Positions 6,174 to 64,000 of a DNA stretch of 64,000 nt are shown in pieces. Position numbers and translations under genes: made by a program. The notes beneath the pieces are model-generated. The model saw only the letters and a program-made list of their open reading frames with translations, was not told where the DNA came from and did not search any database. Source of the DNA: Combretum micranthum (Eukaryota; Streptophyta; Magnoliopsida; Myrtales; Combretaceae); assembly GCA_024138025.1 (NCBI GenBank), contig JAMXBD010000112.1:1736001-1800000 (forward strand), given 5' to 3'. Numbering within the stretch: the first letter of the stretch is position 1; the number at the start of each line of letters is the position of its first letter.

Positions 6174-7207
6174 ATGGCTTCCAAAATATCTGAAAGACTT
6201 AAACAAAAATCCTTTAAGTCAAATACCTCCAAATCTCCAGTCATTATCGAAGAAGACAGTATGGACAAGGCCCACATACCATCTCCCTCAAAAGGTTCTC
6301 AAGAACATTCTGTAGAACTCTCAACACCCAAATCCCCAAAACCTACTTCTTCGACACCAACTTCTGGTACTTCTTCGAAAAGGAAAAGAGTTGAGAAGTC
6401 AGAGGATAAATAAAAGTCGAACAAAGCTACCATCTTGAAAAAGAAAAGCAAGGCTGTTGTTTCTGAATCAACCCCTGGTCAGAGCTCTGCCGCAAGAGTT
6501 ATGGGAAAAAGAAAGAATAAGGTTTGCTCTTGCAGTTTTATAGATTTGAATTTCTTTTCAAATAATGGTTTTTACTGGGATGAAATTCTCAATCCTATTG
6601 GTTGCATGGGTTTATGTTCTATTTAAGTAACAATTTTTGGAGAATGTATCAAAGAATTTTATGCGAATCTTAAGATTACAGAAGACAATAGGTTAAAATC
6701 AAGAGTCTGTAATCAAAAAGTGATATTTGGAAGAAAAGACGTGATTCAATGTTTTGACATGATTGATGTAAATGATGATCCTGAGGTAGTAAATATGAAC
6801 AAGAATGCACTCTTTACAGCTATAAATGGAGGATTAGAAATGGATTATTGTCACGCCCCGAGGGTATTCTAGTAATAGTAATCAAGAAACACTTGGTTCC
6901 TATTACTGGTTACCTTCTAGGAATGACATGATTTTCAAAAACAGGATCTTTTAGTTGCTTGGATGGAATGAACAAACATATATAAGATGTAAATTAGTAA
7001 ACAATTATTACGAACTACAATATTACAGATCATATGCTTTATAAGTCCTTACAACCTTAGCTGATGATTCTAATGCACATTAAATGCATCAAAAGACTAA
7101 TACAGATATAGATATTCTAACCCTATACTAAACTTTAAACTTCTGGCTTCTAATCTCTTACCGGGACCATGCTCCTACTAGTAATGAGCCAGGGTCACAA
7201 AGTGAAC

Positions 7208-8603
7208 CTGAAAGGACTGTGGGAGTGTGAGCTAAAACACAAGCTCAGTGAATAACTAGAACTTATTACATATAACATACAAGTTATTTAATAATCATAT
7301 GAAATGCACCAATCAAACAAATGAACATTACAAGCTTAGATAACCCGGAATCCAAACAGGATGAAGATTTACGCCCTCTCATCGGGGTTGAAGGAACACA
7401 ATCTATGGTCCACCTACCCAGGAGAGACTTAAGCTTTCAAGAAATAATATTCAATTTAATTAGCTTATCATGTTTCATCATTTATTTCCTGTTTTAGCTT
7501 TAGAAACTCCACTAAGTGTTAGTTATTTCTAAGTAATGCCATAAGCGGCGTCCTTCGTTTACCATTTAGTTCCTATGGTATTAACAGAACAAGGGTAATC
7601 TTGCAAATAACTAATAGCTCCCTGGCCTAGATAATTCAAGCATTACCAGATATCCGAAAAACTAACACGTAGTAGGCTACCACTTACTCTAATGCTTTTT
7701 ATGCATAGCATGTAATGCATGATCATTTTCCATTATGGTACCAATAGTTTTTAGTCAATTTGGAGGTGATCAAGAATTAGAGACACTCAATCAGATGCTA
7801 TATACATTATCAAGATACGTGCATTTGTGTTATCACTTATTTTAGAGTGACATGGTAATCAATGTAATACAATACACAACTTTCATAATTCAAACAGTAC
7901 ACCAATTTTCATTATCTTTTTATTTAAGATTCACTACTAGTACAAGCACAACCAATGTAATAAGACTGAGTTACTCACCTGCCCATACTATTTAATTGTA
8001 GTAATCTTCAGGAAGGTCCTCCCCAATACCCGAGTCACCTATTGAGATAAATCATATAGTTATTAAAATTACCAGACTATACAACCTAGTTCCTATGAAT
8101 ATTTAAGTGTCCTAATGGTTTGCTAGGTTTCTGTTTTATTCTTAACTAGTTCTTTTGAAATAGCCCTAAGTTCTAAACCATTGAAATCACAGTTTTATTT
8201 TATTGATTCTGGTTGGATACTTGAATCTATTTATTGGGTATTTGGAAAGTTTAATAATTTAGTTAGTTCATTTTTATTGTTCAAAACTATTAGTTTTCTT
8301 TTTTAATTACTTAATAAATTTTCCTTATAGAGTATAGATATTCCTATACTCACAATTTTGGATTATCTAAATTTCTATTGTTATCTATTCATTTATATAT
8401 ACTTAGTATTTACTAAACTCATAAATTATATATAGATATATATATATATATTTTCTATAAATTAGTTAAATATCATCTTTATGAAAATATACTTACTAAT
8501 AAAAGGATTTATTAATTTAATTACAACTATTTTCGAAAATATCTCCTTTTACCGTAAATAATAAGATTATTAATAATAATAATAATAATAACATCAGTAA
8601 TAC

Positions 8604-8646
<43 letters not shown>

Positions 8647-9397
8647 TCCGAAATAGATAAGATAGAATAATTACTTTTCATTAGTAATTATAGTAATTGT
8701 CTTATACTTTAATTCATAATATTACTAAAATAATTTTACTCTTATTTTCACATTTAATATTATTTCAGAAATAATATTTTCGAAAATTCTAAAAATTCTT
8801 TTAATAATATTAAGAATATTAATAATTATAGTTAGAAAGCCTGTTATACGTAAATTACTTAATAAAAGTAATTTATATTTCTAAAAATTCTTTTTGGATT
8901 AATATTAATAAATTAAATATTTGAACAATATATATTTAATGAGGCTAGAAAATAATTTTATTTTTAAATTTAAATAATAATAAAAAATTCTGGTTTTATA
9001 TTAATATACTCTAATATTACAATTTACATTTCCAGAAAAATAAATAAATGCATAAATAATAATAATAATTCTAAAATTACTTTTATTAATTATTTTATAA
9101 TTAAATTTAATTAGTTTCGTTTTTTCTTTTTCTTTTTTTTTTTATATTTGGCCGAGAGGTACACAGGTGAAACACGCCCGTGTACCGTTCCGTGCTTATC
9201 GGGGAATCACTATTCACTTTCTTCCTCGATGAGCCGCGGTTGATTCCGGCCAATCCCGACGTCAAAACGTCGGGTTTTTGGATCCTATGGACTCCTAAGA
9301 CCTTAAGCTACTTGAATATCCAAGAAAAACAACATAATAACAACATGTTACCCACTATTTTGGATCATCAAGCTTGGTTAGGGTTTAGGAAGATCAC
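7208..9397 (-). other. Predicted intron inside solo LTR A
   Basis: In coding (minus) direction the donor is CGAAG|GTGATCTTCC (first intron base 9397) and the acceptor CAGTCCTTTCAG|GTTC (last intron base 7208). An imperfect palindrome GAGC...GCTC lies just upstream of the acceptor. 2190 bp. Inferred from splice-site fit and from matching positions in the other LTRs; not shown experimentally. Confidence 0.45.
8569..8646. repeat. (AAT)n microsatellite
   Basis: Almost unbroken AAT/TAA repeats with one short interruption near 8591-8605. Confidence 0.95.
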
Positions 9398-9695
9398 CTT
9401 CGTTGTGGCTTCTCGGTGAAATCCGAAGCTCCTAATGGACTTGGTTAGCTTCCTAAGATGTTTAGGAGTCAGTATCAATCCTTAGAATTGAAAGAAAACA
9501 CGCGGAATGGAATCAACTTATCTCAAGCTCGTTTTCACGCGTTTTTCCCGGTTTTTGTTCAAATTTTCGAACTGGGTTGATGTGTGTGTAAAAAAAAATG
9601 ATTTCCAGGTGGATTTAACTCCTAACAGGGTGTAGTTGTATTATGGAAAGTTTGAGAGGGATTGAAGTTCGTTTGCTTGTCTTTCCAAGTTCATT

Positions 9696-9712
9696 AATGT
9701 GTATATATATAT
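9696..9712 (-). promoter_or_regulatory. TATA box of solo LTR A
   Basis: Minus strand TTTATATATATATACAC, about 300 bp upstream of the predicted donor, as in the other LTRs. Confidence 0.5.
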
Positions 9713-11825
9713 AAACGAAGTGCAAAGCTTCGGCCGTGTTTCTTCCTTAAATTTGAAACGAATTGCTCTTATTTGTTGTTCATTCATTCATTTGTTGGAT
9801 TATCATTAATGTGTGGGTGATTTGGCCGGTTTGTATTGGCTTAGGTTAGATTTACATTGACTTTAATGTATATCATTGAGGAAGTTTCGGCTCACTTACT
9901 TTAAGAGAATCACAGCCCTTCAAAACAAGTATAACGTCTTCTGCAAGTTGTGTATATACTTATATATTAATTATATATTAGTTAGATTTTATTTAGTTGA
10001 ATTTTCGGGTAGTTTATTACACTATTAGGGTATATTTTAGCTTATATATGTAAATTTATATGTACAAATGTCTTTAATGGATCCTACAAGATGTTTAGTT
10101 TAACAAAAAGTACAAATTTAAGTTTTAATTGTACGTATTGATTTGTTTAAGAAAAGTTTATCCTCCGCGATTTAGGTTTTATAAGCTTTTCGGGTCAATT
10201 TTCGTTTCAGGCTCCCAGAGCTCTAGAAAACCCTAATTCGAATATTGGTATGATTTAAATCTGTGTTTGAGGTCTAGATCTCAAGTTATTTATCAGTTTA
10301 TATTTTTATTAGGTATTTATAATCCTAACAGTTCATCTTAAGATCACGATTTTCTAACTAAAACCATATTGAGTCGTTTACTTAATATTACTACTGATAT
10401 ATAGGCTAAATTAGTTATATGTATTAGATTTGGATACTCACTATGAAATCTTATAAATGTAGTTTATTACTGACTAGAAATCTCAAATTTTAGGGTTCCA
10501 ATCCAAATGTAGATTCATTACTATACCTTGTTTTAATTTCAGATCTCTATTGAATACCAAAATGGTTTCTTAATTTCTATATTTAGGTTTTCCTATATAA
10601 TCTGTCTGTTTGACAAGGATTCGAGTTTGGGATTTGAAGTTTCCTTTAATCACAACTTGAATTATCAACTCAGGATATGAAATCTTGTTTTTGGTATCAA
10701 TTGAGGTCAAAGAAGTTCTTTTATGAAGTTTATGGGTCCTAATCCGGCCACATTTAAGTTATCTATCTGACTTAGGGTTTCTGGTTAACCTCTAGGTTTA
10801 CTAGTCAGTTCATAAATTCTAATCTAAAGTTGTTTCATATTATGGGAGTTTTCAGGGTTTACAATTATGGTAAAGAGGCAATGATTATTGATTTTGAGCT
10901 GTATCCAAGAATTCTACACAAAATCATCATAGAATGTTTATGTCCTAGAAAAGGAAGTAGCACATCCATGTCTATAGAACATGCACAGATCATTTTTGCT
11001 ATGATGAATGACAAGAAATTGGATATGGCTACAAGGGTTATAGATCAAATATGGAGGAATAAGGACAGTTTGATTTTTGGAAGTGTTCTGATGAAAATGT
11101 TTGAATTCAAAAAGATTAAGTTGCCAGCTAGTTCTAGTGAACCTTTGAAGTTAAAACGGCTTGGCAAGGAAGTTTTTCATCACATGTCCATATATGTAAA
11201 AAATTTTCTTTGGTATGCCAATGATGGATCACATTTTGTGCATCCTCGGCACAAAACCAAAGCAGTTCCAAAGATGACTTCTCTTGATCAAGAAACAGAA
11301 CCTCCATCAGAATCTTCTGGATTCCAACCGTCTTCTGAGAAAACCTCTGAACACGCTGCTACAAGTAGGAGCAAAGTCATTTTAAGTGATTTAGATCTCG
11401 AATTTGTCAAAAGGTTGATCAAAGATACCATAAAGGAAGAAATGGTATCGGTTCAAAATTTGCAGAAAGAAAAATTAGATCAACACAGATACGAATTTAG
11501 AAAAACTATTCAAAATGTTGAAAGAGAACTAAATCTTCTCCGAACTCTATTTGGTGAGTTCAGTGGTAATGTGAAGGACGATCTAAATCGTAATGTCACA
11601 GCATTTGACAAACTGGTGGAGCAAATGAGGAAAGTTGGAGATTCGGTCACCAAATGGTTTGATCAATTAGATGTTAAATTTGCAAAATCAACTCAAGCGG
11701 TCAAGAATCTCCAAGGGGAAATTCAGATGTTCTTGAAAGATCAATTTCCACATTACATCCGACCAGGACCAGCTATCATTGACTTAGACTCTTCTCCTAC
11801 AAAAGCTGCCACCTCTTTAAAATAA

Positions 11826-14480: not shown

Positions 14481-14482
14481 AC

Positions 14483-15452: not shown

Positions 15453-15851
15453 TGTCACGCCCCGAAGGGTACCCTACACGTGGCAGTCCGTCGTACACAA
15501 TATTAAAGCCTAAGAATGACCACCTCAGTCACGCGAAGGCTTCCATACTATGTACAAGGCGTCTAACACATAAAGGAGACACATCGGAAAGATACGTTTT
15601 ATGTTGATACAATTGAGTAACAATGTAAAGGAAATACAATCCACTATACTCCAAATACAAAACCCTATACTTCAAAATACAATTCATCAAACTTCAACTA
15701 CATTCATCCCAAGATTTCACTACATAAAGCTATTACAAAGCAAATCGTAAAGCTTAGCCAAAAACTTCAAGCATTCTTATATCTTGCCGGAATCCTGAAA
15801 TCATTCTCGGCTTCAACCATCTCGGTCCCCACTTAGCATTCTTGGAATAAC

Positions 15852-18082
15852 CTGCTCATTTAAACAACTATTGGGGTATAAGCTACACTAGCTTAGTGAG
15901 AATTCCCTTAATTCCGTACCATAACAAGCAAGTATTAGTCAAACATATGCTATGCATGAACAAACACGTGAGCAAGCAATATGCATGGGTATCCGGAACC
16001 CACACATAGAACGGATTTACACCCTCCGTATCTTGGGCTAGGGATGGTATTGAAGTCTACACGACTGCTGCTAGTCCCCAAGCCCCCGGCTCATAGCACT
16101 CGCCTCTGCTAGGCTCACACATGGAATGCATCCCCGATGCGCCTTAATTTCCTATGAATGAGCTCTGATCCCGGGTCTCATTATCCAAACGAGTCCTCGG
16201 ACCATACCGATCGACCTGCGTAGGAGTAGCATGCTACTAAATGCAATATGTCCTATGCGATGCATGATCAATTTACTTTTTGCTTAGGTCAAAATATTTA
16301 CATTCTTTAGAGTGACCAGCCAATATCATACACATAACAGAAATAATATGAACGGTGCAGTTATCCAATCAAATCATGGTTTCGATATGCTTTAGTATTC
16401 TTTGGCATACATTCATCACAGTCTCAACATATATCCCATCCCCATTCATATCGATTTTTATCTTGTTCCTATAATTCTAATGCGACTAACTACAAGCACA
16501 AACAAGGTAACAAAATAAGGAGAAGACTCACTCGGCCATTGGATCACCGGTCTTCTAGTAATAATAATCCGGTGGTAGGGAATCGTCGAACTCGGGATTA
16601 CCTAAAAAGGGAAGAAATACTCTAGTAAGTATTTCAACTCAAACTAATCCAACGACTTCATACGAACTATCAAATTCGTAATTCGCGTCTTAAGCGGGAA
16701 TTCCAACTTAAAACGGCCATAACTTGGTCATTTTAACTCGGAATCTCGCAAATTTTATATCGATTTCTATCTACTTCGGAAGAGCTTTATAAATATGAAG
16801 TTTAAATCAAGTTTTGAAAATATCTAAGCCTCAGAAATGAGGGATCAGATCTGTACAGCGATTATGTTGATTCCGAAAATGCAATATCCATGAATGCTAT
16901 TGAGATTCCTAAGTGCAAAATGAAGTTAAATGCCATGGTGATGAATTTCCCTATCATGAATGTCATGGTATGAACTCTTAAGTGTCTAAGGTCTTATAAA
17001 TTTTTAGACTTAAAGAAATTAAATAAACTTTTTCTAAGAAAATCATTTCATGCTATTGTTTAACAAGTAAGTTTACTACACTTGGTCACACTTACTTATT
17101 ATAAGGATTTTCTTTAGGAAAACTCCACTTTGTTTAAAGAAATTTTGACCTTTATATTAGTTATATCCTAAGGCCTTTATTTCTTTAATAAAATCTTCAT
17201 TTGTAAACTTTTAAGTGGGTCTTACACTAGGGTGGTTCCAAAAATCCGAATTTAGAAATTTTCATTTTCAAGTTGATTCTTTTAAGAAAAATGCATTTTA
17301 TACTTAGAACTTTAAGTATTTGTTTTACCTATACCCTAAGGACTTCATTTATTTAAGAAAATACCATTTTTGGAGTTGGAAAACTAGTGTTTTCTAACCA
17401 TCTATCCATTATTACGAATTTGGCTTTCAAGACTTTTCACTCAAAACTTCTTTTAGACTTCATCTCTTGTTTTAAACATTTCCTTTAGTAAAAACTCATT
17501 TAAACTCAAGAAAAACATCATCAAACATTATCTATCACCTATAGGCTTCATTTTTCTTGTAAAATACATGTTTAGAAGTTGGTAAAAGGGTTTTTAGGCT
17601 AGGGTTCCCAAGTCATCCGAATTTACACTAACTCATTTCTTGAAAAGTGTTTTCCTTTTTGGTTTTGTTAACTCATCTATCTATAGATCTATGTATTAGA
17701 AAGGTTATTTACTAAGGACAAAAACATTAAAGACCATTAATGCACATAAACTCAAAATAAAGATGAGATCTTAAATGTCTACATGAATATGAGTAGTAAA
17801 ATGATAGATCTACTATATCAAGTGCTTAAATAGGTTTTGAAAACATAAAAACTACATTTTTATAAAAGATCCTTTGTTCAAAACACCTTTTGATGAAAAA
17901 TCATAAAGCTTATGGCATGAAAGCTCCTTTAAATGCTAGATCCACTTTGTGATGGTTCGGTATTCTTGTTTTGATATTTCCTTGTCCCTAGCAAGAGCTC
18001 ATGGGGATATTTAGTTAGAAATATCCAAGAATATCCTTGCCATTACAAGGATCTAAGGATATATGAAGCAAGATTCATTTAC
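15852..18082 (-). other. Predicted intron in the 3' LTR of the gag-only element
   Basis: In coding direction the donor is TTACCTTAA|GTAAATG (18082) and the acceptor AAATGAGCAG|GTTATT (15852). The palindrome-like AAGCTAGTGTAGCTT lies about 40 bases upstream of the acceptor. 2231 bp. Inference from sequence only. Confidence 0.45.
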
Positions 18083-18250
18083 TTAAGGTAAAATAGGAGA
18101 CAAAAAGGAAAAGAAACAAGTTGTGTGTGTGTGTGTGTGGGGGCATCAAAACTCACGATAAAGGGAAAAAAAGAGAGAGGAATGAGAGTTTCCTTTACGT
18201 TTTAAAAAGTTTGAAAATGAAAGAATGAGGAAAGAGAGAGAAAATGTAGT

Positions 18251-18260
18251 TTATATATAA
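18251..18260 (-). promoter_or_regulatory. TATA box of the 3' LTR of the gag-only element
   Basis: Minus strand TTATATATAA, followed by a pyrimidine-rich leader (CTCTCTCTTTCCTC). The identical box in the 5' LTR lies near 29755-29763. Confidence 0.55.
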
Positions 18261-19987
18261 AATGAGATTAGGTTAAATGGGACTAAAATACTTTTAAAAA
18301 AATTGTACAATGGAGCTTCATGGGGGGGTTTCACGCCGGCCAATGCATGAGAAAAAGGGGGGATTTGATTTTTTATTAACTTGTTTTGATTGTTTTGTTT
18401 TGATGGATGTACATAAAGTCACATAACTTGTAATAATTATTTGGAAACAAAAGTCCTTGGAAAGGAAAATGGAATTGAGTGGTTGTAAGAATAAGGTGTA
18501 CAAATGAGTAGTCATAGGTTGTACTTGTGAATAGTAATGAATAGTAATCAAGACAACTTAATTACCGATAGTAAGAAAGATACGAATAAAAAGGTTATAA
18601 CTGTATTTTTCGTAAGCCGGAAAATTATGAAATTTATATTTTTGAAATCCTTATTTTATTTCTATTCAAATGAGTATTCACAAGTAGATTTTTGAAATTC
18701 TAGTTCCAGGGCACACTTTTTCTATAATGGGTCTCGGGATGACCCGAAATTGAAATTTTCTTAAAATCTGATCTTTTCTTGGTTTGAAATATAATCAAGA
18801 CCTATGTTCAAAATTAAATTTTCTTATAAAATTTTCCTAATTAGAAACCGAGGAAAAGCCGGATTTAGGGTTCCTATTTCTCACTCCAGTCTTAAACTAT
18901 TCCGGTTTAGGGTTTTGTTTTCCGTTTCTTGAGTTATCTTGGTTACTTGAAAAACCGGGGTTTACAATACTTTGAAACAATATTCCATATTAAATTATTT
19001 TATAAAATTTCTTTTGATATGAAACCGAGGAAAAGCCGAATATAGGGTTTCTAGGTCTTTCTCATGACGCTTTGAACTAAACCGGTTTAGGGTTTCATTT
19101 TCCGGTTTTCGAAGTTTACTCGATTACTAGGAAACCCGGGGTATACATTATAGGAATAACAAAATTATGTAACGAAATAAAAGTGAGTAGTGCAAAAAAA
19201 ACTAATTAATTACTGGTAGTAATGAAAATACGACAAAAAGGTTATAACTGTAACTTTTTATAACCCGAAAAATTATATAACTGATATATTTAGAAATCTT
19301 ATAAAATTACGAGTCTAACGGTACTAATGGTATATTTTTGATATCTCGAGCCCCGGGACACGCTTTTCGGAGTCTGATCCGAACGGGTTCGAAATAGGTC
19401 AAAATTTACCAATCTGATTTTTTTTTTTTTAAATAAACTTATATTACTACGAGCTATTCTACATATTTAAACTACCTCTCGGCCTCTAGAGTTAAGGGTG
19501 TTAGATTGCCGGACTTAAGCTATTGTATTCCACTTAGGGTTTCCAGGTGATTTTTCCGGTTTAGATTCTTGCCAAAATGAAAACTAATATTTTATGTTTA
19601 TACAACATATTTAATTTGAGAAATCTATTTTACATTTCATTTTTGTAAGTATTTAATATCTTTTAATGTTTTCGGAATTCTTGAATAGGGTTTCATTCTC
19701 GAAGTTAATTGTTATTTACTTTTTAATAATTTATTTTTGGGTTCTATATTACCCGATTTTATAAGTCGGAGTTACGTATAGAATTTGTCGTACGTAGTGG
19801 TTTTGGAATTGGACTTTGTTGAGTTCTTATTTTGTTTTTAAAGATTTTCATTTTCTCAAGATTAAGAATTTCTAGATTCGTTCGTGATTTAGGACATGTC
19901 GAAATTCGGTTTAATTTGGAGTGATTTTTAGGGTTTATTTTCGAAATTCATCTTGGAATTATTTATTGAAATTTTCCGGGGCTTACA

Positions 19988-20000
19988 TCCTCCCTACCTT
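19988..20000 (-). other. Polypurine tract of the gag-only element
   Basis: Minus strand AAGGTAGGGAGGA, directly next to the 3' LTR; primes plus-strand cDNA synthesis. Confidence 0.8.
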
Positions 20001-20794
20001 AAAGAAAGTTTTGTCTGCAAAACTTGTTACGTGTATATCGTTTATCGAGAAAAGATTGTGGATTTTTGAATTATATTTCTAGCACCGGTTTATGCTTTGG
20101 TTTGTATCATTTCTAAATTTTGCATGATAAATATTTTACGAAATATAGCACATACAAATTAATAAGATTTGGCTTAGCGATTCCAACCTTCACTTACACG
20201 ATTCTTTTGGAAAACGACACGGACTTGACTTGAGACCACAGACGACTCGACTCGACCGACACTAGACGACTCATGACAACACGACCTTTCATGACTCGAT
20301 TACTTGACCAACGAAGGTTGTGGATTCACTTCTCCATTCTAATGTAGATGTATATACAATATTGTGCTTTATGATTCATATTCCCTTAAACAATATGGTC
20401 ATCATCGTTTTAAATTCTTATCATCATGATCATCTTGATGGGATTGAAATCAAGAGATCTCATTGCTTTATTGTATAATCATTTACTTGTGAAGATCTTA
20501 TGGAGTTGGGTAATTGAGATTTGATCGCTGGAATTTTAACTTTTGTGTAACGATCGTCGTAGATTTCGATCTTTCAAAGTTCTTTGTTTACAAGAAGTTG
20601 TATGAGGATTGTCTTGGAATTCGTTAAATTAATCGAGTTTTGTTTTAGTTTCCATCATTGGCTCATTCTAGCTTTTAATGGTTTCGGGCTTTCCTACTTT
20701 TCAGTCTAGCCATTTAATCCGAAGGTATTTCTAACAACCTATTCCTTTGATTCTATTGACAGGAAAGAATATGCGGTAGTCTAAGGGTATAGCG
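20001..20794 (-). other. 3' untranslated region of the gag-only element
   Basis: No coding potential recognised. The part next to the purine tract (minus strand CAGACAAAACTTTCTTTAAG) resembles the end of Tekay pol. A GAC/CGA-rich low-complexity patch lies at about 20205-20310. Confidence 0.5.
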
Positions 20795-22039
20795 TTAACC
20801 TGATACCAAGTTACATATTTGATCCTCGCTTCCTTCCATGGAAAAGGACTCCAGCTCCTCATCACTAGCTTCTTCATACACCCCATATGTATGAGGGTTG
20901 TGGACTGGATTTCCGGATATAGTTGTTCCTGAAGAACTTTGATTCCTTTTTCCTTTGTTGCTTTTATTCCTATTATATCTCTTCCTCTTCTTCCTTGGTA
21001 GATCCAGCGAAGCGACATGCGGGTTATCCCGTTCAGGGCATGTTTTAGCCAAATGTCCCGTTTTTGTGCAAAGAAAGCATCTGGTGGTCATCTTTTTAGG
21101 ACACTTCTCAACTTTGTGACTAGGGTCCCCACAGAGATAGCACTTGAATAGGAGTTGTGGACACTGAATAGGGTAATGTTCTCTCTTACATTTCCAACAT
21201 TGTAGCTTATCCAAAATTATGTCTTCTTCCTTGTTTGGGTCATCATCCAAGGGAAGTGTTATGACATTTTGACTCGGGGTCATTGAAGCATAGAACTCCA
21301 TTTCCTTATTACTTCTTTCTTGACTCCTCCTTTGAGCATTTTCTATTATTCGTGCTCTTTCTAGCAATCCTTGGTAACTCCTAATATCAAATTCCTCCAA
21401 TCGAGTCCGAAGATCTTCTTTCAAACCATTCAGAAACACTTGTCTTTTGAGTTCCTCACTTTGTTTATATGATTCCGGAGCATATTGCAACAATCTACTG
21501 AACTCAGTTTCATATTGTTCCACACTACGATCTCCTTGTGAGATATTGAGGAAATCTGCACTGTACTGGACTCTTAAGCTCATGGGGAAATATTTGTCCA
21601 AAAACTCATATTCAAACATCTCCCATGTAACTGGACGCGTTAACTCTCTTTCCTTAGATTCCCACCATACTCGGGCATATAAGCGAAGCATATAGGTTCC
21701 ATAATGGATTCTCAGACGGTGTGGTACTTCCAAAGCATTAAAGGACCTCTCAATGTGTGCCAACCAATCCTCTACCTCATCTGGTTTTCCAAAAACTCCA
21801 TCGAAATACTGGTTACACTTTATGAAGCATGGTAAGAGGCTTTGGTGGTATTGAGGTGGTGGTGGCTCATCTTGCGTTGTTTCTTGCACATATCTTATAG
21901 GTGTAGACGTTGAACTGACTTGAGTCTGTTGCATGTAGCCTCTTATCTGACTAGTAAGCCGTTCAATCTCTATTGAGGCATTTCCCCCTTGGTTAGGTGG
22001 TTCGGGTATCGCTTGGTTCTCGGGTTCTAAAGGAGTCAT
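20795..22039 (-). CDS. gag: Intact Gag of the gag-only element, 414 aa
   Basis: Capsid/nucleocapsid precursor. Start ATG at 22039 (MTPLEPENQAIPEPP); no stop or frameshift. Residues 1-75 are Pro/Gln-rich with a short helix. Residues about 75-240 are a Ty3/gypsy retrotransposon Gag core (ARVWWESKE; EYEFLDKYFPMSLRVQ; SVEQYETEFSRLLQYAPES). Three zinc knuckles follow at about 280-340: CWKCKREHYPIQC (shortened, CX2CX3HX4C), CYLCGDPSHKVEKC and CFLCTKTGHLAKTC. A strongly basic stretch (RKKRKRYNRNKSNKGKR) is next, then an acidic tail. The Gag core resembles Del/Tekay Gags. The intact frame in an element without pol suggests recent activity with help from a partner. Confident as Gag; expression unknown. 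Confidence 0.93.
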   Translation of the reverse strand: MTPLEPENQAIPEPPNQGGNASIEIERLTSQIRGYMQQTQVSSTSTPIRYVQETTQDEPPPPQYHQSLLPCFIKCNQYFDGVFGKPDEVEDWLAHIERSFNALEVPHRLRIHYGTYMLRLYARVWWESKERELTRPVTWEMFEYEFLDKYFPMSLRVQYSADFLNISQGDRSVEQYETEFSRLLQYAPESYKQSEELKRQVFLNGLKEDLRTRLEEFDIRSYQGLLERARIIENAQRRSQERSNKEMEFYASMTPSQNVITLPLDDDPNKEEDIILDKLQCWKCKREHYPIQCPQLLFKCYLCGDPSHKVEKCPKKMTTRCFLCTKTGHLAKTCPERDNPHVASLDLPRKKRKRYNRNKSNKGKRNQSSSGTTISGNPVHNPHTYGVYEEASDEELESFSMEGSEDQICNLVSG

Positions 22040-22428
22040 GACGGGTTCTTGTTGTGGTTGGGTATATCTCCTACAATTTTATTAAGCTCAGGTGAAAATT
22101 CTAAATCTTTTATTACGTCTTAAGGCGGTAAAAGAAGCTTAAAGAAACTTATCGGAAATACAGAACACGGAAATGCGGAAATAAAAACATATGTAAGAAA
22201 TATTGAAATTCTACTGAAATCAAAATCGATAACAAAAACTTCATAATATTCAAAACGAAATACATGAAATCAAGAGAAGATGTAAATCTTTCATTACAAA
22301 AGTTCAAAGAAAGGATGCAAAACATACATTGGAATTACTTCATGAACTAGATGATAAACCACAACATCAGTTTACATTTTCAAAACATCTTTGTTCTCTT
22401 CATTCAAAAAGTTATTTGCTCCTAACGC
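22040..22428 (-). other. Spacer between the two gag-related ORFs
   Basis: AT-rich, no recognised coding sequence. Confidence 0.5.
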
Positions 22429-22962
22429 TCAACATGAGAGATCTATTGATATTTCTAGGAGACTAACTTCTTCCAAACAAGGGCAGCTGTCCAGCTGGTA
22501 ATTCTTGTGGGGGCATCTACTCGCTCGGTGTCCCAACTGTTTGCAAATGAAGCACTTTAGGGTTTTCTTTCCTGGACAGTCCATAATCTTATGCTCGAGA
22601 TCTCCACATAAGTAACACCTGTGCTTCAGTTGTGGACATTGTCTTGGATAATGACTTTCCTTGCACTTCCAACAATTGACCTTATGCCTCTTAAAAGGTT
22701 CATTCTTAACTGTTAGGCTAGTTGTCTCATACCTTCTGACTTTGGAGCTTGGACTAGCCATAACAGAAGGAGTCTCAATTCCTTGCATTGTCACTTGGTG
22801 GGGTCCTTCCACCTAAACCGACACATTCCTAATAAGCACTTGTTGTAAGAGGAGCTTTTGTGTATCCACCAAACACCCTAGAAGGTCTATGACTTGTTGC
22901 ATTGGATCTTGTGGTGGTAGAGTGTCTCTCACTTGTTGTTCATCAGGAAGGCTAGTCGACAT
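22429..22962 (-). pseudogene. Short zinc-knuckle ORF upstream of Gag, one stop
   Basis: The likely start is ATG 22962 (MSTSLPDEQQVRDTL), followed by a Gln/Leu-rich helix. An in-frame TAG at about 22814-22816 (one change from CAG) breaks it; the rest is open to 22429. Then come three zinc knuckles with the same spacing as in the downstream Gag: CWKCKESHYPRQC, CYLCGDLEHKIMDC, CFICKQLGHRASRC. There is no Gag core between helix and knuckles, so it looks like a Gag with its capsid part deleted, or a separate nucleocapsid-like protein. A solo LTR (22973-26449) lies 11 bp upstream of the ATG. Role unknown; RNA binding is likely by family. Confidence 0.7.
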
Positions 22963-23321: not shown

Positions 23322-23346
23322 AGCTATAAAAATTACAGTTATAGCT
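23322..23346. repeat. Conserved short inverted repeat in U3 of LTR C
   Basis: AGCTATA-AAAATTACAGT-TATAGCT, able to form a 7-bp stem. Counterparts occur in the other LTRs (19240-19265, 53126-53148, 59108-59132). Confidence 0.6.
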
Positions 23347-23684: not shown

Positions 23685-23693
23685 ATATATAAG
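23685..23693 (+). promoter_or_regulatory. TATA box of solo LTR C
   Basis: CATATATAAG followed about 12 bases later by a CT-rich stretch (CTCTCTCTCTC) where transcription would start. Confidence 0.55.
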
Positions 23694-47339: not shown

Positions 47340-47348
47340 TTTATGTTA

Positions 47349-50060: not shown

Positions 50061-53000
50061 TGTCACGCCCCAAAGGGGTATCCTAAACGTAACAGTCCGT
50101 CACATGCTATATAAGACTCTCGAATTTCTATTCAAGCCCTTCGGGAGTCTTATATAGATGTAAAGCGTCCATTTACGACAATAGAATACTCTATTCAATG
50201 GAGTTAAGAAGTTTAATGTGGCATCTGATAGCCATAGATAATAAATCAAAACACATATATATAAAATTACACAGTCTAAGGGGCATTTCCCCGCAAAAGA
50301 ATATTAAGGTCCATTACACTCATCCAGAGTCTTTTGGTTTCCTGTGGAAGTCTAAAGAAAACCGAAATAACTTCTAAGAGAAGCTCCTAACTCCGATACC
50401 TGAGCTGTAGCCTGCCTTGGCCTAAGCCAAATGAACTCATGCTGCAACAAGTAAAAACTATAAGGGTGTAAGCTAACTAGCTTAGTGAGTGAAAACTTCC
50501 ATATCGCAATTAAGACATAACATTCAAGCAAGTGATTATTCAATCAAGTGAAATGCATCAAACACGTGAATTCAACAAACATATGACCAGCTGGAAATCA
50601 TATGTGGATGGACTTGCGCCCTCCATCCCGGGTTAGCAGATTATCGAATCCTACAGTACGACGCCGTTTAAGCTCACGGTCAACTGAATAATAATTCGTT
50701 TTATGGATCACGATTAACCAACATATTTGTTTTATGGATCACAATTAACCAACATATTCGTTTTATGGATCACAAAAAACCAACAAATGCTAATGCTCCA
50801 TCCCCATCGTGATATGAATGAGTTTGAATTTATATTGAATGTATAATAGTCGATTAATCCAATTCTTTTAGGTGGCCAAGCAATATTAGCAGACAATCAA
50901 TTCTAGCTCCTCTATATACAAGCAATGAATTATCACCCGGCTTCGATATTCTTTAAATTCAACTTCACATATCAGCAGCAGACAATTATAATTCCCACTA
51001 ACCCCATCATGCATAATCATTCTTTTTATCTTTGCTTAGCAACTAGTGCAACTATCATTACAATCACAAACAATAATTGAAATCGGAAGTGATACTCACT
51101 TGGCTATGGTACGCCGGTCTCTTAGTAATAGTAGTCGGGTGGTGGGGTATCGTCGTTCTCAGGATCACCTACCAAATAAGAATAACCTAATGAGAATTTC
51201 ATCACTTAACTAATCCAAACTATGCATCTAAACTAAACAAAATCGTGATTCTCGCTTTTTGTGGAAGTTCCAAATTAAAATGGCCATAACTTGGTCATTT
51301 TAACTCAGAATTTCGCAAATTTTATATTGATTTCTATCTACTTCGAAAAATCTATCTATTTCTATTATTAATTCCAAGTTTTGAAAACATTTAGGTCACG
51401 GAACAGAGGGATCAGATATGTTCTGTAACTTTTCCTTTTCCGAAAAATTGTTTTGCACTTAATCAAAATGTTTCTAGTTGATGATTCATGCATAGATAAA
51501 ATATGAATGAATTCCTAATATGAATAACATGTAATGAGTTCAATATATGCATGATCTTGATGATTTTTGATAATGAAACTTTAAGAACTCCTAATTCTTA
51601 CAAGACTCCAACAATACTTATTTCTTAAAAATCCACTTTTTCCAATTTTGCATCTCCTTAGTGTTTTGCGATTTTATTCTTAGAATTTACGTGTTATCTA
51701 AATAAAAATGAGTCTTCATCATCTATACTATCCAAGACCTTCATTTCCACATAAAAATTTACATTTTTTCACCTTGCAAGTATATTTTCAAATAAGCTTT
51801 TCACAAAAATCCAAATTTTGAAAAAATTCATTTCTTGCATGTTTCCTTTGAGAAAACTTGTTTAATGCATCAAAATTTAAATTACTATATCCACTACCTA
51901 AGGACTTCATGTAACACATGAAACATGCAATTTGAGCTTGAATACTAGGTGATTACATATGCATCATCTCAAATTACGAATTTGACAACTTAAACACTAA
52001 CTCAAAATTTTCCATCTTAATTTTACTACTTGTTTTACACATTACTCATGCCTAAACTTATTTCAACTTGTAAAAATCATTACTTAGAGATACCTATTAC
52101 CTATACCTTTCATTTTTCATGTAAAATATGAGTTTCGAAGTCGTTTGAAGGGTTTTTAAAATAGGTCTTGAAGTTCATCCGAATTTTCCATTAAGCATTT
52201 CTAACAAAAACCTTTTCTTTTCAAGTTCCTTGTCTTATATTCATAAAGATCTACCATCTAACACATTTATATATATGCAAGACTAAGCTTTTATGATCAT
52301 TAATGCATGAAAACCCAAAATACTCACATGAACATAATGTCAAGAAAAACATGAGTATCTAAACACTAGATCTACAATTTATAGTGTATGAAAATGAGTT
52401 TAAAGACATGAACATAAATTTTTCATGCAAGATCTCTACTTTTATATACATGAATATAATATTACTTCAACAAAAACTCATTAAACACAAGATCTACTTC
52501 TTGTGATGGCTTGATATTCTTGTATTAGTGTTTTCTTATCCCTAGCATTTGCTCATTGGGATTTAAGTTGGAAAACACACAAGAATGGTCTTGCCATTAC
52601 AAGATTATGTAATAGAAAGGCTAGAAATCATCACCTAAAAGAAGATTTGGAGAAGAAAAGAAGAGGAAATGAACTTGTGAGTGAGTGTGTGTGTGTGTGT
52701 GTCACGACAAGAATGAGGAGAAGAAGAGAGGGTTTTGCTTCTTGTAAAATTTTTGAATGAGTAAAAATGAGGAGAGAGAGTGAAAATAGGTTTATATATT
52801 AAGTGAATTAGGGTTTAGTTGTAATAAAAGAAATAAAAATAAAACAAATAGAGGGAAATGGGGGAGGGGGTGCACTTGCCACACTAGAGGGAAGAGAGAG
52901 GGAGTGAATTAATTTGATATATTTTGTAATTTAAGTAATAAAATGTAATAAATGTAATAATTAAGTAGGAAACAAAATTTTCTTGGAAAGAAAAATAAAA

Positions 53001-53501
53001 TGAGTAGTTGTAAGGATATAAGAATAGGGTATGGGTAGTGTGTAGTGTAGGTTGTACTTGTGAATAGTGGTAAATAGTAGACAAGACATCTACTTTACCG
53101 GTAGTAAAGAAAATAAGGGAAAAATGCTATAACTATAATTTTTATAGCCCGAAAAATTATAAAATTTATATTTTTGAAATCCTTATAAAATTTCGGTTCT
53201 AATGAATATTCCGGAATATTTTTCTGAGTTTCTAGTCCCGGGGCTCGTTTTTCCATAATTGTGCTCGGGAAGGCCCGGAATAGAAATTTTTCCAAAATTA
53301 AAACTTTCTAAGGTTTGAAATATACTTTAAAACAATAATTCGCATTAATTTATTTTATAAAACTTCTTTTGTTATGAAACCGAAGGAAAGCCGGATTTAG
53401 GGTTTCTAAGCTTCTCTCATTAAGCTTGAACTAGACCGATTTAGGGTTTTGCTTTTCGATTCCCGGAGTTTACTTGACTACTAAGAATACCGAGGTTTAC
53501 A
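50061..53501 (-). mobile_element. Solo LTR F, 3441 bp
   Basis: Plus strand TGTCACGCCCCAAAGGGG...CGAGGTTTACA; perfect TSD CATGT (50056-50060 and 53502-53506). TATA box AATATATAAA on the minus strand at 52791-52800, a (GT)n run at 52686-52702, a 31-bp tandem array at 50693-50790, and a GGGGCATTTCCCC hairpin at 50279. Confidence 0.93.
50452..52634 (-). other. Predicted intron inside solo LTR F
   Basis: Donor TTCTTTTAG|GTGATGATT (52634); acceptor TTACTTGTTGCAG|CATGAG (50452). AAGCTAGTTAGCTT is upstream of the acceptor. 2183 bp. Confidence 0.48.
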
Positions 53502-56073: not shown

Positions 56074-59000
56074 TGTCACGCCCCGTAGGGTATCCTAAAC
56101 GTAACAGCCCTCCACATACTAAGTAAGACTCTCGAGTTCCCTACCCGGGGCCTTCGGGAGTCTTAAGTAGATGTAAAGCGTTCATTTACGACAATAGAAT
56201 ACTTCAGCAAATGGAGTTAAACAGTTTAACGAGGCATTCGTTAGCCATAGATAATAAATCAAAACGCATAATTTAAAGTTTACAAGATCTAAGGGGCATT
56301 CCCCCGCAAAAGAATAACAGTCTATTACAGTCATCTAGAGTCTTTAGTTTCCAATGGAAGTCTATACAAAAAGGAATGGATTAAACTTCTATGGGAAACT
56401 CCTATCTCCAGTACCTGTGCTGTGGCTTGTCTTGGCCTAAGCCATATAAAATCATGCTGCAAAAGATAGAAACTATAGGGGCGTAAGCTAACTAGCTTAG
56501 TGAGTAAGAACTTCCATAACACAATTAAGTACAATTCATTCCAAACAAGTGATTATTCAAGCAAGTGTATGCATCAAACAAATGAGTTCAACAAACATAT
56601 GACCAACCGAAAATCATATGTGGATGGACTTGCGCCCTCCATCCCAGGTTAGCAGATTAACGAATCCTGCGGTACGACGCCATTTAAGCTCACGGTCAAC
56701 TGAACAATAACTCGTTTTATGGATCACGATTAACCAACATATTCGTTTTATGGATCACGAAAAACCAACCAATGCAAATGCTCCAACCCCATCGTGATAT
56801 GAATGGATTCAATTTACGTTTGGAACCGAATATTCATTAATTCAATTCTTCCAAGTGACCAACAAGTATTCACAGACATTCATCATAAGGTACTAGCTAA
56901 TCAGTCAATAGTTTAACACCCGGTTCCGATATTCCTTAAACTCCATTTCACATATCAACAGTAGACAACATATATAACTCCCAAATACCCCATCATGCAT
57001 ATACAATTTCTTTTATCTTTGCCTATATCACTAGTGCCACTACATTACAATCACATTCATTAATTGAGATTGGAAGTAAAACTCACTCGGCCATTGGACG
57101 CCAACTTCCTAATAGTAGTAGTCGGGAGGTAGAGTGTCGTCCTGCTCGGGATCACCTACCAAGCAAGAATAATCCTAATGAGATTCTCATTATGTAACTA
57201 AATCAAACTATACATCTAGACTAGTTGAATTCGGATTTCTCGCTATTTACGGAAGTTCCGACTTAAAACGGCCATAACTTGGTCATTTTAACTCGGAATT
57301 TCACAAATTTTATATCGATCTCTATCTACTTCGAAAGATCTATCTATTTCTAATATTAAATCCAAGTTTTGAAAATAATAAGGTCACGGAACAGTGGGAT
57401 CAGATCTGTTCCGCAATTGATCCAATCTCGAAAATTTGCTTTGCTTTTGATAAAAAGTGTTCCTAGATGATGATTCATGCATGAATGATATGGGAATGAA
57501 TTTCTAATATAAATTCCATGTGATGGAATTAATATATACATGGTCATAATAACTTTTGTGATAATAACTCATATGAACTCTTAAGTGTTGGGGAAATTCT
57601 CATAAAGACTAATTCTAGGAAGCTATTTTTCCACATTACATTCCTTAGGGTTTCTTTGGCTTTTAATCTTGTAATCCACTTATTATTTAACTAAAAATAA
57701 GTTCTCAAAGTTTATATTAACCATGGCCTCCATTCATGCATAAAAATTCCTATTTTTCATTTGGTAGACATGTTTTTGAACTAGCTTTTTGTAAAAATCC
57801 GAATTTTCTAAATTTCATTTTCTTGTATTTTCCTCAAGGGAAAACTCCTCTAATACATTAAAAATTGAAGCTCCAATGTGTATATTATCTAAGGACTTCA
57901 TTTAGCTTATAAAACATCCAATTTAGATTTAAATACTAAGTGTTTATATGGGCATTACCCAAAATTACGAATTTTGACTACACATCCAAAGTCAATATTT
58001 TTCCTTCTAACTTCACTTCTTGTTTTCTTATTTTTATTATGCCTAAACTCATCTAAACTCATGAAAATAATTCCTTCAACATGTCTATTACACATACCCT
58101 TCATTTTCCTTATGAAATACAAGTTTAAAAATGATTTTGGTGGTTTTCAAGGTAGGGTTTCCATTTCATCCGAATTTTCAACCTTCCATATTTGACAAAG
58201 TCCTTCCTTTTTCAATGTTCTTGCCTTCTATATATGATTATCCACTATCTAACATCTCTATAGATATACAAGACTACATTTTTTTGATCATCAATGCATG
58301 AAAATAAAAATAACTCTATGATCATACATGTAAATGACAATGTGGGTGTCTAAACTTTAGATCTACTAAGTATGATGCATAAATCATGGATCTCATGGCA
58401 TGAACAACAATATATATGCAAGATCACTACTTTACATGCATGAACAAGATGAGATCTTAATAAAAACACATCTAAACATTAGATCCATGTCTTGTGATGG
58501 CTTGATATTCTTGTTCATGTGTTTTCATGTCCCTAGTATAAGCTCATTGGGATTAAATGAGAAAACACACAAGATATAGCTTTGCCATTACAAGATTAGG
58601 AAGAAACAAAGCTTAAATCAACATACCAATGGAGTCTTGAAGTGAAAAAGAGAAGAAACAAAGTTGGAAAGTGAGGATGGGGAGGGGGAGCAAGCTCACG
58701 GCACAATGGGGTAAAAAGGAGAGAGTTTTTCTCTTTTCAAAAGTTAAAACAAGAAGAAAATGAAGAGAGAGAGAGAACATTTAGTATATATACTAAGGGA
58801 ATTAGGGTTTAGATAAATAAAAAGGAGTAAAAATAACTCAATTGAGGGGGAAATAAGAGGGAGGGGCGCCGGCCACATCCTTGTGGGTGTGTGTGTGTGT
58901 TTTAAAATTTGATTTTTTTTGTAATTTAGTAAATTAAATGTAATAAATGTGATAATTATTTAAGAGACAAAATTTCTTGGAAAAGAAAATTGAAATGAGT

Positions 59001-59480
59001 AGTTGTAAGGATATAAGAATAGGGTATGGGTAGTGTGTAGTGTAGGTTGTACTTGTGAATAGTAGACAAGACATCTACTTTACCGGTTGTTCCGAAAACA
59101 TGGGAAAAGCTATAACTGTAATTTTTATAGCTCGGAAAATTATGAAATTGATATTTTTGGAATCCTTATAAAATTACGGTTCTAATGAATATTCCGGAAT
59201 ATTTTTCTAAATCCGTGGTCCGGGGCACGCTTTTCCGTAATTGGGCTCGGGAAGGCCCGGAATGGAAAAATTCCCGAATTTAAAACTTTCAAAGGTTTGA
59301 AATATACTTTGGAACAATAATTTAAATTCATTTACTTTATAATATTTATTTTACTATGAAACCGAAGGAAAGCCGGATTTAGGGTTCCTAGGCTTCACTC
59401 ACAAGACTCAACCTGATCGGATTAGGGTTTCAATTCCAACTCCTGGGGTTTCCTAGCTACTGAGAATACCGGGGTTTACA
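56074..59480 (-). mobile_element. Solo LTR G, 3407 bp, nested in LTR H
   Basis: Plus strand TGTCACGCCCCGTAGGG...CGGGGTTTACA; perfect TSD CATTG (56069-56073 and 59481-59485). Closest to LTR C. TATA box near 58784-58792, GCGCCGGCCAC patch at 58866, (GT)n at 58886-58899, 31-bp array at 56705-56790, GGGGCATTCCCC hairpin at 56293. Confidence 0.93.
56457..58626 (-). other. Predicted intron inside solo LTR G
   Basis: Donor CTCCATTG|GTATGTTGAT (58626); acceptor CTATCTTTTGCAG|CATGAT (56457). AAGCTAGTTAGCTTACG is upstream of the acceptor. 2170 bp. Confidence 0.5.
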
Positions 59481-61218: not shown

Positions 61219-61751
61219 TGTAACGCCCTAACCTAAAGGCGTTATCAGCCCGCCACGTGTCATTACCAAAGATTGACACACAAAAGCTATATTTTCAAAT
61301 CCACCAATATATATAACTCAAATATCACCAATAACTCTCAAACAAAGGATACTTGAAACAAAATGTCCTTAATTCATCTAAATCATAAAACTAAACAATT
61401 TAACTTGAAAGAAATAACATAATCTCCAATACATATTATAAACTAATCATAAAAATATTATTTTTTTTCCTACAATCACTAGATGCAAGATCACTAATCT
61501 TAGCTATCGACAGAAGGATCAAATCCACTATCACTTTCCCTATAGTCCACGAATACGTCGTATCCCGTCAAATCATAGATAATAGAATCCTCACCTGTAC
61601 CTGTGGGAAAAATAAGGATTGAGCAAAAAACACCCATAACGCCAAACCGAAAACACATGCACATGATCAAGCAATAAGCAATATTACATACGACTTAGAA
61701 ACTAATGCAACAAACACTAATTATTATCTTCAAATTAGCCAAGCAACCAAC
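61219..61751 (-). repeat. Diverged long-LTR start, interrupted by LTR I
   Basis: Plus strand TGTAACGCCCTAACC...GCCCGCCACGTGTC, the same plan as TGTCACGCCCC...GTCCGCCAC in the others. The minus strand has an acceptor TTTTTCCCACAG|GTACAGG (intron end about 61601). It must continue beyond the right window edge. Confidence 0.5.
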
Positions 61752-64000
61752 TGTCACGCCCCAAGGGGTACCCAAAACGTGACAGTCCACCATACTTAAT
61801 ATTAAAGCTTAAGTAGACAACCTTAGCCATTCCCAAAAGCTTTGATATTAAGTGTAAGGCGTGCTCTCACAAGTTTAGAGGACCATACCCGGGATTATGA
61901 AGTTTAACAAGATATAATAACATGTTTAAGAAAAGAGAACTCATAATATTCATTTGCTTATAATAATATTCTTACAAAACTCAGGGACATTTTCCCTTAA
62001 TCTCTAGTCTATTACAAGAAGATTACATATCTTATCCAAGCTAAACTTTATCTAGAATTTCTTTGCTCCAAAAAGAAATTACCTAGTCGCAGGGTCCTCG
62101 TGGCCTCAACCACAGGTAGGGAAACTGCAAAATATATCAATTGGGGTATAAGCTAACAGGCTTAGTGAGAACTATTTCCATAAATAACTTCTTGTAACAA
62201 GATTTCAAACAAGTTGTTTAAGCAATCAAATGGAATGCAACATTCACGTGGGAAAACAATCATATAGCTTTCTAGGAACTATATGTTGAATGGATTTACG
62301 CCCTCCATTCGGAGTTTGGCGATACTTAACCTCAATTTAAGTAGTTTTAGTTAAAAAGTTTTATGCTCACGAGCACTCATCGCCAAGCATTCCGTGTCTA
62401 CTTGAATTGACCTTGCTTTCGGATTTTCCGCCAAGCACTTCCTTAAAGCCGCCAAGCAATCGCTTTCGGATACTCTGCCAAGTGTTGCTTTCAACATGAG
62501 CCTACTATCCTTCTCACCCAAGGATAATAACCCATATGCAATGTGACTCACTTCGTGGTATGTATGAATCCATTTATTTATGATATCATAACATAATTAT
62601 TAATGAATTTAAGGTGATCAAGGATTTTCACACAAATCAATTGTTATACTAAACAAGCATTTAAATCAATTTCGGCCTCGGTATTCTTAGGATTCTTTCA
62701 AAGAATTATTTTACATACATATCCATTTGTCTTTTTCCTAATTCTAATGCAACTATTTTACAAGCACAACAAGTATAGCATTTTAAGGAAATAAACTCAC
62801 GATGCCATGTCGACTATTCCTCTATGCGGGTGAGTCGCTCACACACTCCTGTTAATCGAAATAATCTTTGGTATATAAATATCCTTCCTCGGAGTCACCT
62901 AGCCAAATAAAATACCCATAATGAGTATTTCTTGATGATTTTCTTGAATTGTGACAAAACAATATCAAAAGAATGTTAAAGTTCGTATAAAGGAATGTTC
63001 CAAGAAATCAAAATTTATTTGATAAATACTTAGTTATCTATATAGTTGAAAAATTCTCTTTTTATACCTATATAACTCATATTTAAGCATGCTCAAGTGT
63101 TTTGTTTGTCCAATTATATTTCTTGAGTAAAACAATGTTGGTTTGAAGTTTTAGAAAACATAGTTTACAAGAATTTATTTTTGTAACTTTCTTGGAATGA
63201 ATATTTGTTTCCCTTTGTTTTCCCGAAATTGCTTTATGTTGGTTTTATTATTTTTCCCAATTAACTTTTTGAAAATAAAATTTTCTATTTTCTAAGTTCT
63301 CTTATATTAGTACCATTTTTCCTATTTATTTTTCCTATACAATTTTCTTTGCCTATTTGTTTGTAAAGGTCTTTATTTGAAAATTCCTTAGCCTTTCATC
63401 TTGTTTATCTTTTTCATAACAATCATTATTGTATCAACAATTATTTTCTTTTGAAAAACAAAGTGAAATAATAAAGGATTTAAGTAGCTTTTCAAAGTAA
63501 AAGTAGTTTCAAAAATTATAGTGAGTTCTTTTTGTAACTTGAAAAGAAATGATCTTATTTTAGAATATAGATTTTATTCTTTACATAAACTTATTTCCAA
63601 GTGACAAAATCTTCTTTTTTTATTTTTTATTTTTTGAAATTTTTGGACAACAATCTAAATGAACATGATTTATGAGAATAAAAGCAAGTAAAATAATATA
63701 AGTAATAAAGTCAAGTATTAGAGTCTTAGCTTTTTTTTTTTTTCAAGGCTCCCGGGACTAAGAAGTAGACTAGTCCCAAAATAAAATGAAAGAAAGAAAA
63801 AAAAATTGTTTTGACTTGATGAGGACAAGTCTAAGACTAGAGACTAGTCTTATTTTAGCAAGGAATAAATAAATTGCATTTGCATAAAAATAAATAAGTT
63901 GCAAGTGAGCTTATATGCTATAAAGAATATGTATATATATATAGATAGATAATAATACTTAGATATAGTAACAATAATATGAACAAAAATAAGGACATGA
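61752..64000 (-). mobile_element. LTR I, cut by the right window edge
   Basis: Plus strand TGTCACGCCCCAAGGGG, preceded by CCAAC (probable TSD). Acceptor ATATATTTTGCAG|TTTCCC (intron end 62125), with AAGCCTGTTAGCTT upstream; the donor would be beyond the window. 62360-62500 holds four CGCCAAGCA-type motifs with CTTTCGGAT spacers. The end part resembles LTR D/E (GACTAGTCCC, AAGACTAGTCTT near 42530-42620). Confidence 0.85.

What the first reader, a model, noticed from the sequence alone, without database searches (positions are those of the whole stretch)
6849..64000. A conserved intron-like layout inside the long LTRs
Seen in sequence: in coding orientation, LTRs A (6849), B (15453 and 26984), C (22973), D (39957), E (38561), F (50061), G (56074) and probably H (53907) each have TATA box, leader, good donor (AG|GTAAAT, TTG|GTATGT, AG|GTGATG, TAG|GTAAGT) and, 1.6-2.6 kb later, a pyrimidine/T-rich acceptor ending CAG; LTR I and the 61219 LTR show the acceptor. 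Several of these LTRs hardly align otherwise. Known: plant LTRs are seldom described with their own spliced intron. Inference: the LTR mimics a host gene with a leader intron, which could raise expression, export the RNA, or make the full-length packaged RNA differ from the spliced mRNA. If retrotransposed RNA were spliced the intron would be lost, so its retention in every copy suggests unspliced genomic RNA and regulated splicing.
Basis: partly seen in the sequence, partly recalled or inferred. Interest (0 to 1): 0.85.

Follow-up and report, generated by a model that had tools for sequence, protein, structure and literature searches.

The report
Retrotransposon repeats carrying spliced coding exons
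The long end repeats of a plant retrotransposon family look like small split genes, and one short exon in them appears to give the element's capsid gene both its first codons and its last ones, so that only the unspliced RNA could be copied back into DNA.

Summary
The LTR layout is real, but it differs from what was described. Donors after a TATA/leader were located in 7 LTR copies (B twice, C, D, E, F, G). A has none that aligns, and H matched no family acceptor. The conserved acceptor block lies in 10 window LTRs. The stated CAG acceptor is probably wrong: in C, F and G it sits inside a reading frame starting 16 nt upstream, after a conserved YAG (variable sites 1/0/13 by codon phase, best of 1046 overlapping windows). 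Phases fit this model: in the 5' LTR, E2 supplies the start codon, spliced over the PBS into gag; in the 3' LTR the same exon supplies gag's C-terminus and stop. Spliced gag mRNA would lack the PBS and could not be reverse transcribed, which would explain why copies keep their introns. Splicing itself is inferred: no RNA was available, and the genome search for processed copies did not complete. Rows listed by my literature searches showed no intron lying wholly within a plant LTR and no LTR exon used at both ends.

The parts
15453..31486 (-). Element B, gag-only, TSD ACTGC; 3' LTR 15453-19986, 5' LTR 26984-31486; host of solo LTR C
26965..26977 (-). PBS TTGGTATCAGAGC next to the 5' LTR (iMet type, recalled)
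20798..22078 (-). gag ORF; acceptor TTGTAG| before 22070, donor TCAG|GTTAAC at 20799
   Evidence: (Retrotrans_gag 2.7e-15)
22973..26449 (+). solo LTR C, TSD CGTTC
6849..10863 (-). solo LTR A, TSD ATTAT
39957..44323 (-). solo LTR D, TSD ATTTG, inside LTR E
50061..53501 (-). solo LTR F, TSD CATGT
56074..59480 (-). solo LTR G, TSD CATTG, inside LTR H
38561..47370 (-). LTR E, interrupted by D; right end approximate (extrapolated)
61752..64000 (-). LTR J (3' part; runs off the window)
23851..23856 (+). exon 1 donor in C, TTG|GTATGT
58621..58626 (-). exon 1 donor in G, TTG|GTATGT
52629..52634 (-). exon 1 donor in F, TAG|GTGATG
42888..42893 (-). exon 1 donor in D, TAG|GTAAAT
45957..45962 (-). exon 1 donor in E, TAG|GTAAAT
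29581..29586 (-). exon 1 donor in B 5' LTR, TAA|GTAAAT (weak)
18077..18082 (-). exon 1 donor in B 3' LTR, TAA|GTAAAT (weak)
25335..25407 (+). exon 2 (E2) in C
28036..28105 (-). E2 in B 5' LTR (donor here GCGAGT)
16532..16601 (-). E2 in B 3' LTR
57087..57155 (-). E2 in G
51100..51168 (-). E2 in F (ATA in place of ATG)
41046..41112 (-). E2 in D
39663..39732 (-). E2 in E
62801..62898 (-). E2 in J
7979..8038 (-). E2 in A
26052..26109 (+). exon 3 (E3) in C, ..ATAG| to CAG|GTATCG
56415..56472 (-). E3 in G
   Evidence: end by arithmetic
50400..50457 (-). E3 in F
   Evidence: end by arithmetic

Best explanation
The LTRs of this Ty3-type family carry a TATA/leader exon (E1), a middle exon (E2) and, in several lineages, a third exon (E3), with introns lying wholly inside the LTR. 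E2 is read in two ways. In the 5' LTR its ATG-NNN-NN| gives the start codon of a spliced gag mRNA (directly to gag in the B type, probably through E3 in the C/F/G/J/E types). In the 3' LTR its upstream half gives gag's C-terminal tail and stop codon, replacing the stop of the unspliced gag frame (TCA G|GT TAG to G|GT GAT CCC..). The 5' splice into gag removes the PBS, so spliced RNA makes Gag but cannot prime reverse transcription; unspliced RNA keeps LTR, PBS and introns and is the genome. Shown from sequence: conserved splice signals, coding pattern of E3, conserved E2 peptide and ATG, matching phases. Inferred: that splicing happens, which isoforms form, and how they are balanced.
For: Three different leader types all end in a GT donor (T1 13 of 13 rows, T2 5 of 5 sense rows, T3 20 of 20 rows keep GT at the aligned site, read by eye). 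E2: 52 profile hits, 50 parsed; ATG exactly 8 nt before the donor in 47 of 50, a position not used in the parsing; all 50 have a donor of the searched form G[TC][GA]AGT, 48 of them GTGAGT; TAG acceptor in frame with the peptide in 43 of 50, tract 85% pyrimidine in those. E3: of 1046 overlapping ungapped 57-nt windows with at least 8 variable sites in the C/F/G LTR alignment, the best is E3 (variable sites 1/0/13 by phase, p 1.8e-5 uncorrected), the second best place is E2 (1/2/8, p 0.026). E3 differences by codon position: C-G 0/0/7, C-F 1/0/7, G-F 1/0/7, J-L018 2/0/4, E-L018 3/1/7; peptide [LI]LQ..[YF][LI]WL[RKA]P shared by C, F, G, J, L018, L031 and E (stop right after it in E). The bias is 2/0/25 in the first 49 nt and 13/18/14 in the next 60. 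gag: AG kept at the acceptor in 26 of 27 copies (by eye), GT at the donor in 27 of 27, and both phases fit E2.
Against: No transcript seen. Processed, intron-lacking copies could not be searched (genome search did not complete). Exon 1 donors score poorly in 6 of 38 sense rows, B1, B2 and F among them. E2 shows no significant codon periodicity by variable site within the B type (33 rows) or across the other types (17 rows); over all types the bias is modest (variability .244/.169/.324), and the in-frame stop and the donor form were part of the parsing rule. Seven of 50 E2 copies lack an in-frame TAG acceptor. B and D leaders contain ATGs that were not excluded as starts. Two gag copies (C580, C3698) have a stop in the predicted N-terminal extension (both have other stops), and gag also has its own ATG. 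B-type E3 shows no coding bias. D-type E3 is open only in another frame. Cross-type E3 pairs compared without realignment (C/F/G against J, E, L018, L031) show no bias (they differ in length by a codon). The gag copies are too alike for splice-site conservation there to be telling.
Confidence: 0.57

Rival explanations
1. One non-coding leader intron from the exon 1 donor straight to the acceptor near the LTR end.
For: Donor and late acceptor block are both conserved; nothing excludes skipping of E2.
Against: Ignores E2 with its own pyrimidine tract, TAG, ATG and GTGAGT; the named CAG lies in a codon-constrained frame in C/F/G and is CATG in L030 and L033.
Confidence: 0.15
2. E2 and E3 encode a separate small LTR protein, or are exons captured from a host gene, not parts of gag.
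For: E2 ATG plus E3 form a frame in C, J and E; E2 lies in nine window LTRs, seven of them not attached to a gag that I found.
Against: E2's peptide has no ATG before it in the C and L014 leaders (read by eye), so there it needs an upstream coding exon; gag has a phase-1 donor at its end and a phase-2 acceptor at its start.
Confidence: 0.2
3. No splicing: the blocks are DNA or RNA cis-signals (promoter, packaging, polyadenylation) and the splice-like motifs are by-products.
For: Hairpin-like elements flank donor and acceptor; no RNA evidence.
Against: Third-position bias in E3 and the fixed ATG-to-donor spacing are not expected of cis-signals.
Confidence: 0.08

Closest known systems
TR-GAG elements (terminal repeats with a GAG domain only)
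   Same: Element B: two LTRs, PBS, polypurine tract, gag as the only recognised ORF (passages on TR-GAG seen in PMC9784723)
   Different: Very long LTRs with internal exons; LTR-coded gag ends are not described in the passages seen
BARE1, copia and EVADE spliced Gag RNAs
   Same: A spliced RNA dedicated to Gag; in BARE distinct from the packaged RNA (passages in PMC3735527, PMC12786077)
   Different: Those introns lie in the internal region; here they lie in the LTR, and further ones would span the PBS and, towards the 3' LTR, its U3
CRM group A centromeric retrotransposons
   Same: Protein coding runs into the 3' LTR (passage in PMC3059260)
   Different: [quoted passage not shown] here the LTR part is a separate exon, also used at the 5' end
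Avian sarcoma/leukosis env mRNA and HTLV/foamy donors in R (recalled, not tested)
   Same: Start codon or donor supplied by a 5' leader exon; packaging signals in the intron
   Different: No complete introns inside the LTR, and the exon is not reused in the 3' LTR (recalled)

Membership tests
TR-GAG (element B) | Paired LTRs with target duplication | tested here: met
   96.8% LTR pair, TSD ACTGC
TR-GAG (element B) | PBS and polypurine tract | tested here: met
   TTGGTATCAGAGC; AAGGTRGGGAGGA before the 3' LTR in B and relatives
TR-GAG (element B) | gag present, pol absent | tested here: met
   gag is the only ORF of 150 aa or more in the interior; shorter broken pol pieces were not looked for
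Ty3/Gypsy superfamily | Retrotrans_gag / Ty3_capsid domain | tested here: met
Ty3/Gypsy superfamily | pol order PR-RT-RH-INT in an autonomous partner | not tested
   partner not looked for; genome search unanswered
Spliced plant LTR retrotransposon | Experimentally spliced RNA | not testable with these tools
   no RNA data
CRM group A | integrase CR motif encoded in the 3' LTR | not tested
   E2 tail was not compared with the CR motif

The most novel reading that the evidence does not exclude
A single exon inside the LTR, present twice because the LTR is present twice, supplies the start codon of gag from the 5' copy and its C-terminus and stop codon from the 3' copy; splicing removes the PBS, so the protein-coding RNA is structurally barred from replication.
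Probability: 0.45. Interest if true: 0.9.

Novelty: new variant of a known kind. Interest (0 to 1): 0.75.

Why it matters
If true, it gives a simple structural answer to how an LTR retrotransposon keeps its translated and its packaged RNA apart. It makes LTRs protein-coding in a way that, to my knowledge, annotation pipelines do not look for, may help explain why some plant LTRs are 3-5 kb long, and means solo LTRs can scatter ready-made exons with splice sites over the genome. It is directly testable with long cDNA reads.

Tried and rejected
Single-intron model: kept as a rival after E2 was found. CAG as acceptor: dropped for C/F/G because of the codon pattern, and because two B-type relatives lack it.

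Hairpin after the donor as a packaging signal: T1, T2 and T3 leaders each have a palindrome 25-60 nt after the donor, but several T1 rows do not fold there, so it is only noted. Hairpin TAAGC..GCTTA before the acceptor: 94.8% of cells paired, against a shuffled mean of 94.4%; 2 cells with a change on both sides (26 of 500 shuffles as high).

U-richness: the introns measured are not consistently richer in T than exon 1 and are lower in G+C than the stretch after the CAG. Random genome samples: 1 acceptor hit in 3 x 10 kb. Codon periodicity of E2 within groups: not significant. Rfam: no match in the window at gathering thresholds. Public proteins: 3 relatives of gag. Literature: ten searches; I saw titles and abstract starts of the listed rows, and passages of four papers (PMC9784723, PMC12786077, PMC3735527, PMC3059260); no paper was read whole. 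An automatic tally of the gag acceptor was mis-set and is not used; the count given is by eye.
Full report
Setting. The window is part of a 1.86-Gb genome held without a name (G000:C112:1736001-1800000). A search with the B gag gave 33,440 unscored first-look candidates and 99 listed matches (98 candidates scored), so the family is probably abundant. Seven LTR copies of 3.4-4.5 kb were measured in the window (A, B twice, C, D, F, G), with parts of E, I and J besides; A, C, D, F and G are solo, with TG..CA ends and 5-bp duplications. Element B (15453-31486, minus strand) is the only one for which I found an interior: PBS TTGGTATCAGAGC beside the 5' LTR, and a gag (22078-20798; Retrotrans_gag 2.7e-15) with no other ORF of 150 aa or more. 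It sits inside an older Ty3 element whose LTRs are 13967-14483 and 35112-35628, and it is itself interrupted by solo LTR C.

Exon 1 donors. In C/F/G and in D/E the donor survives where the leader in front of it aligns poorly. Forty 5.1-kb stretches upstream of gag copies elsewhere in the genome (40 of the 99 places listed) gave a third leader type. Profiles of the three types matched 13, 7 and 20 places (two of the seven are antisense matches to a palindrome). Read by eye, every sense row keeps GT at the aligned site while the bases before and after change (TTG|GTATGT, TAG|GTGATG, CAA|GTAAGT, TAG|GTAAAT, ACG|GTAAGC, TAG|GTAAAG, TAG|GTTGAG). Scores with a matrix recalled from Arabidopsis are mixed: taking the best GT in a 47-nt span (in L030, L033, L034 and L043 not the aligned one), 32 of 38 sense rows rank 1-9 among 44-97 GTs nearby, and six are poor (B1 31 of 84, B2 28 of 81, F 14 of 93, L015, L042, L039). 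LTR A matched none of the profiles, and H has a donor but no family acceptor.

The late acceptor. A profile from ten window LTRs found 48 places, ten of them in the window. The block CTCACTAAGCTAG-TGTAGCTTAYACCCC-ATAG is better conserved than its surroundings. In 42 distinct rows (six duplicates dropped) the final G is in 42, the A in 41, and the base before is T in 39 and C in 3: a YAG. In C, F and G the sequence from that YAG on is a reading frame: 13 of 14 variable sites in a 57-nt window fall in one phase, the best of 1046 overlapping windows with enough variable sites. Pairwise differences over the first 43 nt are 0/0/7, 1/0/7 and 1/0/7 by codon position. The bias is 2/0/25 in the first 49 nt and 13/18/14 in the next 60; a donor-like CAG|GT follows nt 58. 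J, L018, E and L031 encode the same motif, [LI]LQ..YLWL[RKA]P, with J-L018 2/0/4 and E-L018 3/1/7. B-type LTRs show no such bias there, and D-type ones are open only in another frame.

The middle exon. Aligning the conserved centre of the LTR showed an exon between the two sites: a pyrimidine tract and TAG|GT, about 15 codons ending LPPDYYY, LPEDYYD, TKDYFD and the like, a stop, then CCA ATG GCC GA|GTGAGT. A profile of it hit 52 places, nine in the window. Of 52, 50 could be parsed with a rule that asks for a stop after a DY-like motif and for a donor of the form G[TC][GA]AGT after it, so the stop (TAG 29, TAA 20, TGA 1) and the donor (GTGAGT 48, GCGAGT 1, GTAAGT 1) are partly by construction; the ATG exactly 8 nt before the donor (47 of 50) is not. 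The in-frame TAG acceptor is present in 43 of 50, its tract 85% pyrimidine in those; of the other seven, two keep TAG with a shifted peptide frame and five lack it. Codon periodicity of E2 is modest overall (.244/.169/.324) and not significant by variable site within groups; in the C/F/G scan it is the second-best place (8 of 11).

Where the exons lead. E2's peptide has no ATG before it in the C and L014 leaders (by eye), so there it needs a coding exon upstream that ends one base into a codon; the B and D leaders do contain ATGs and were not excluded. The B-type gag mostly ends as TCA or CCA, then GGT TAG, i.e. G|GTTAG: GT in 27 of 27 copies, G before it in 26 (7 of the 8 loci, L006 left out, plus 20 fetched). 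Joined to E2 this keeps the glycine (G|GT) and swaps the stop for the LTR tail. At the other end, the gag frame is open upstream of its ATG to TTGTAG|G AGA TAT ACC in 25 of 27 copies, with AG in 26 (counted by eye). It needs two bases, which is what ATG GCC GA| leaves. Both fits are exact; each would occur by chance about one time in three. The gag copies are close relatives, so conservation there says little by itself.

Consequence. The 5' splice removes the LTR end and the PBS. Spliced RNA could make Gag but could not be primed, so retrotransposition would have to use unspliced RNA, and new copies would keep their introns. It is inference until junction reads are seen.

Comparison. A December 2025 review states that plant LTR retrotransposons generally lack introns, with Ogre and EVADE as exceptions (passages, PMC12786077). 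BARE1 splices near the end of gag, Ogre between ORFs, and CRR removes rt (passages, PMC3735527). CRM group A frames run into the 3' LTR (passage, PMC3059260). In the passages seen, none has introns inside the LTR or an LTR exon used at both ends. The rows listed by searches (20 of 73; none; 4; 5; 14; 3; 12 of 44) show no such title or abstract start; the library is open-access only.

Noticed in passing
L009-L048, oriented 5' LTRs: LTRs look like mosaics: shared outer parts with different promoter/leader segments, as if promoters were swapped between subfamilies.
   Followed up: partly
window 15453-31486 interior; L001-L008: A second, decayed zinc-knuckle stretch lies a few hundred bases upstream of gag, like a duplicated gag end (read by eye).
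   Followed up: no
L052 (C1298 copy): LTR-like sequence is fused directly to the gag acceptor, with the leader between missing (by eye).
   Followed up: no
G000:C1669:46846-56671: Two very similar gag copies 8.5 kb apart with similar upstream LTRs, suggesting LTR-gag-LTR-gag-LTR.
   Followed up: no
and rows: Palindromic hairpins 25-60 nt after the exon 1 donors of all three leader types; row L034 may show a compensating pair change.
   Followed up: partly
window 2030-4928: Pieces of a Copia element: gag-pre-integrase, integrase core and RVT_2.
   Followed up: no
window 10776-11825: ORF of 349 aa with a weak match to Transposase_32, below the curated cut-off.
   Followed up: no
window 13967-35628: Older Ty3 element with 517-bp repeats 98% alike, split by element B; its pol frame is in several pieces.
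   Followed up: no
P0001, P0002: Related public gag proteins have LV[AT]G near their end followed by different residues, about where the B gag has its candidate donor (by eye).
   Followed up: no
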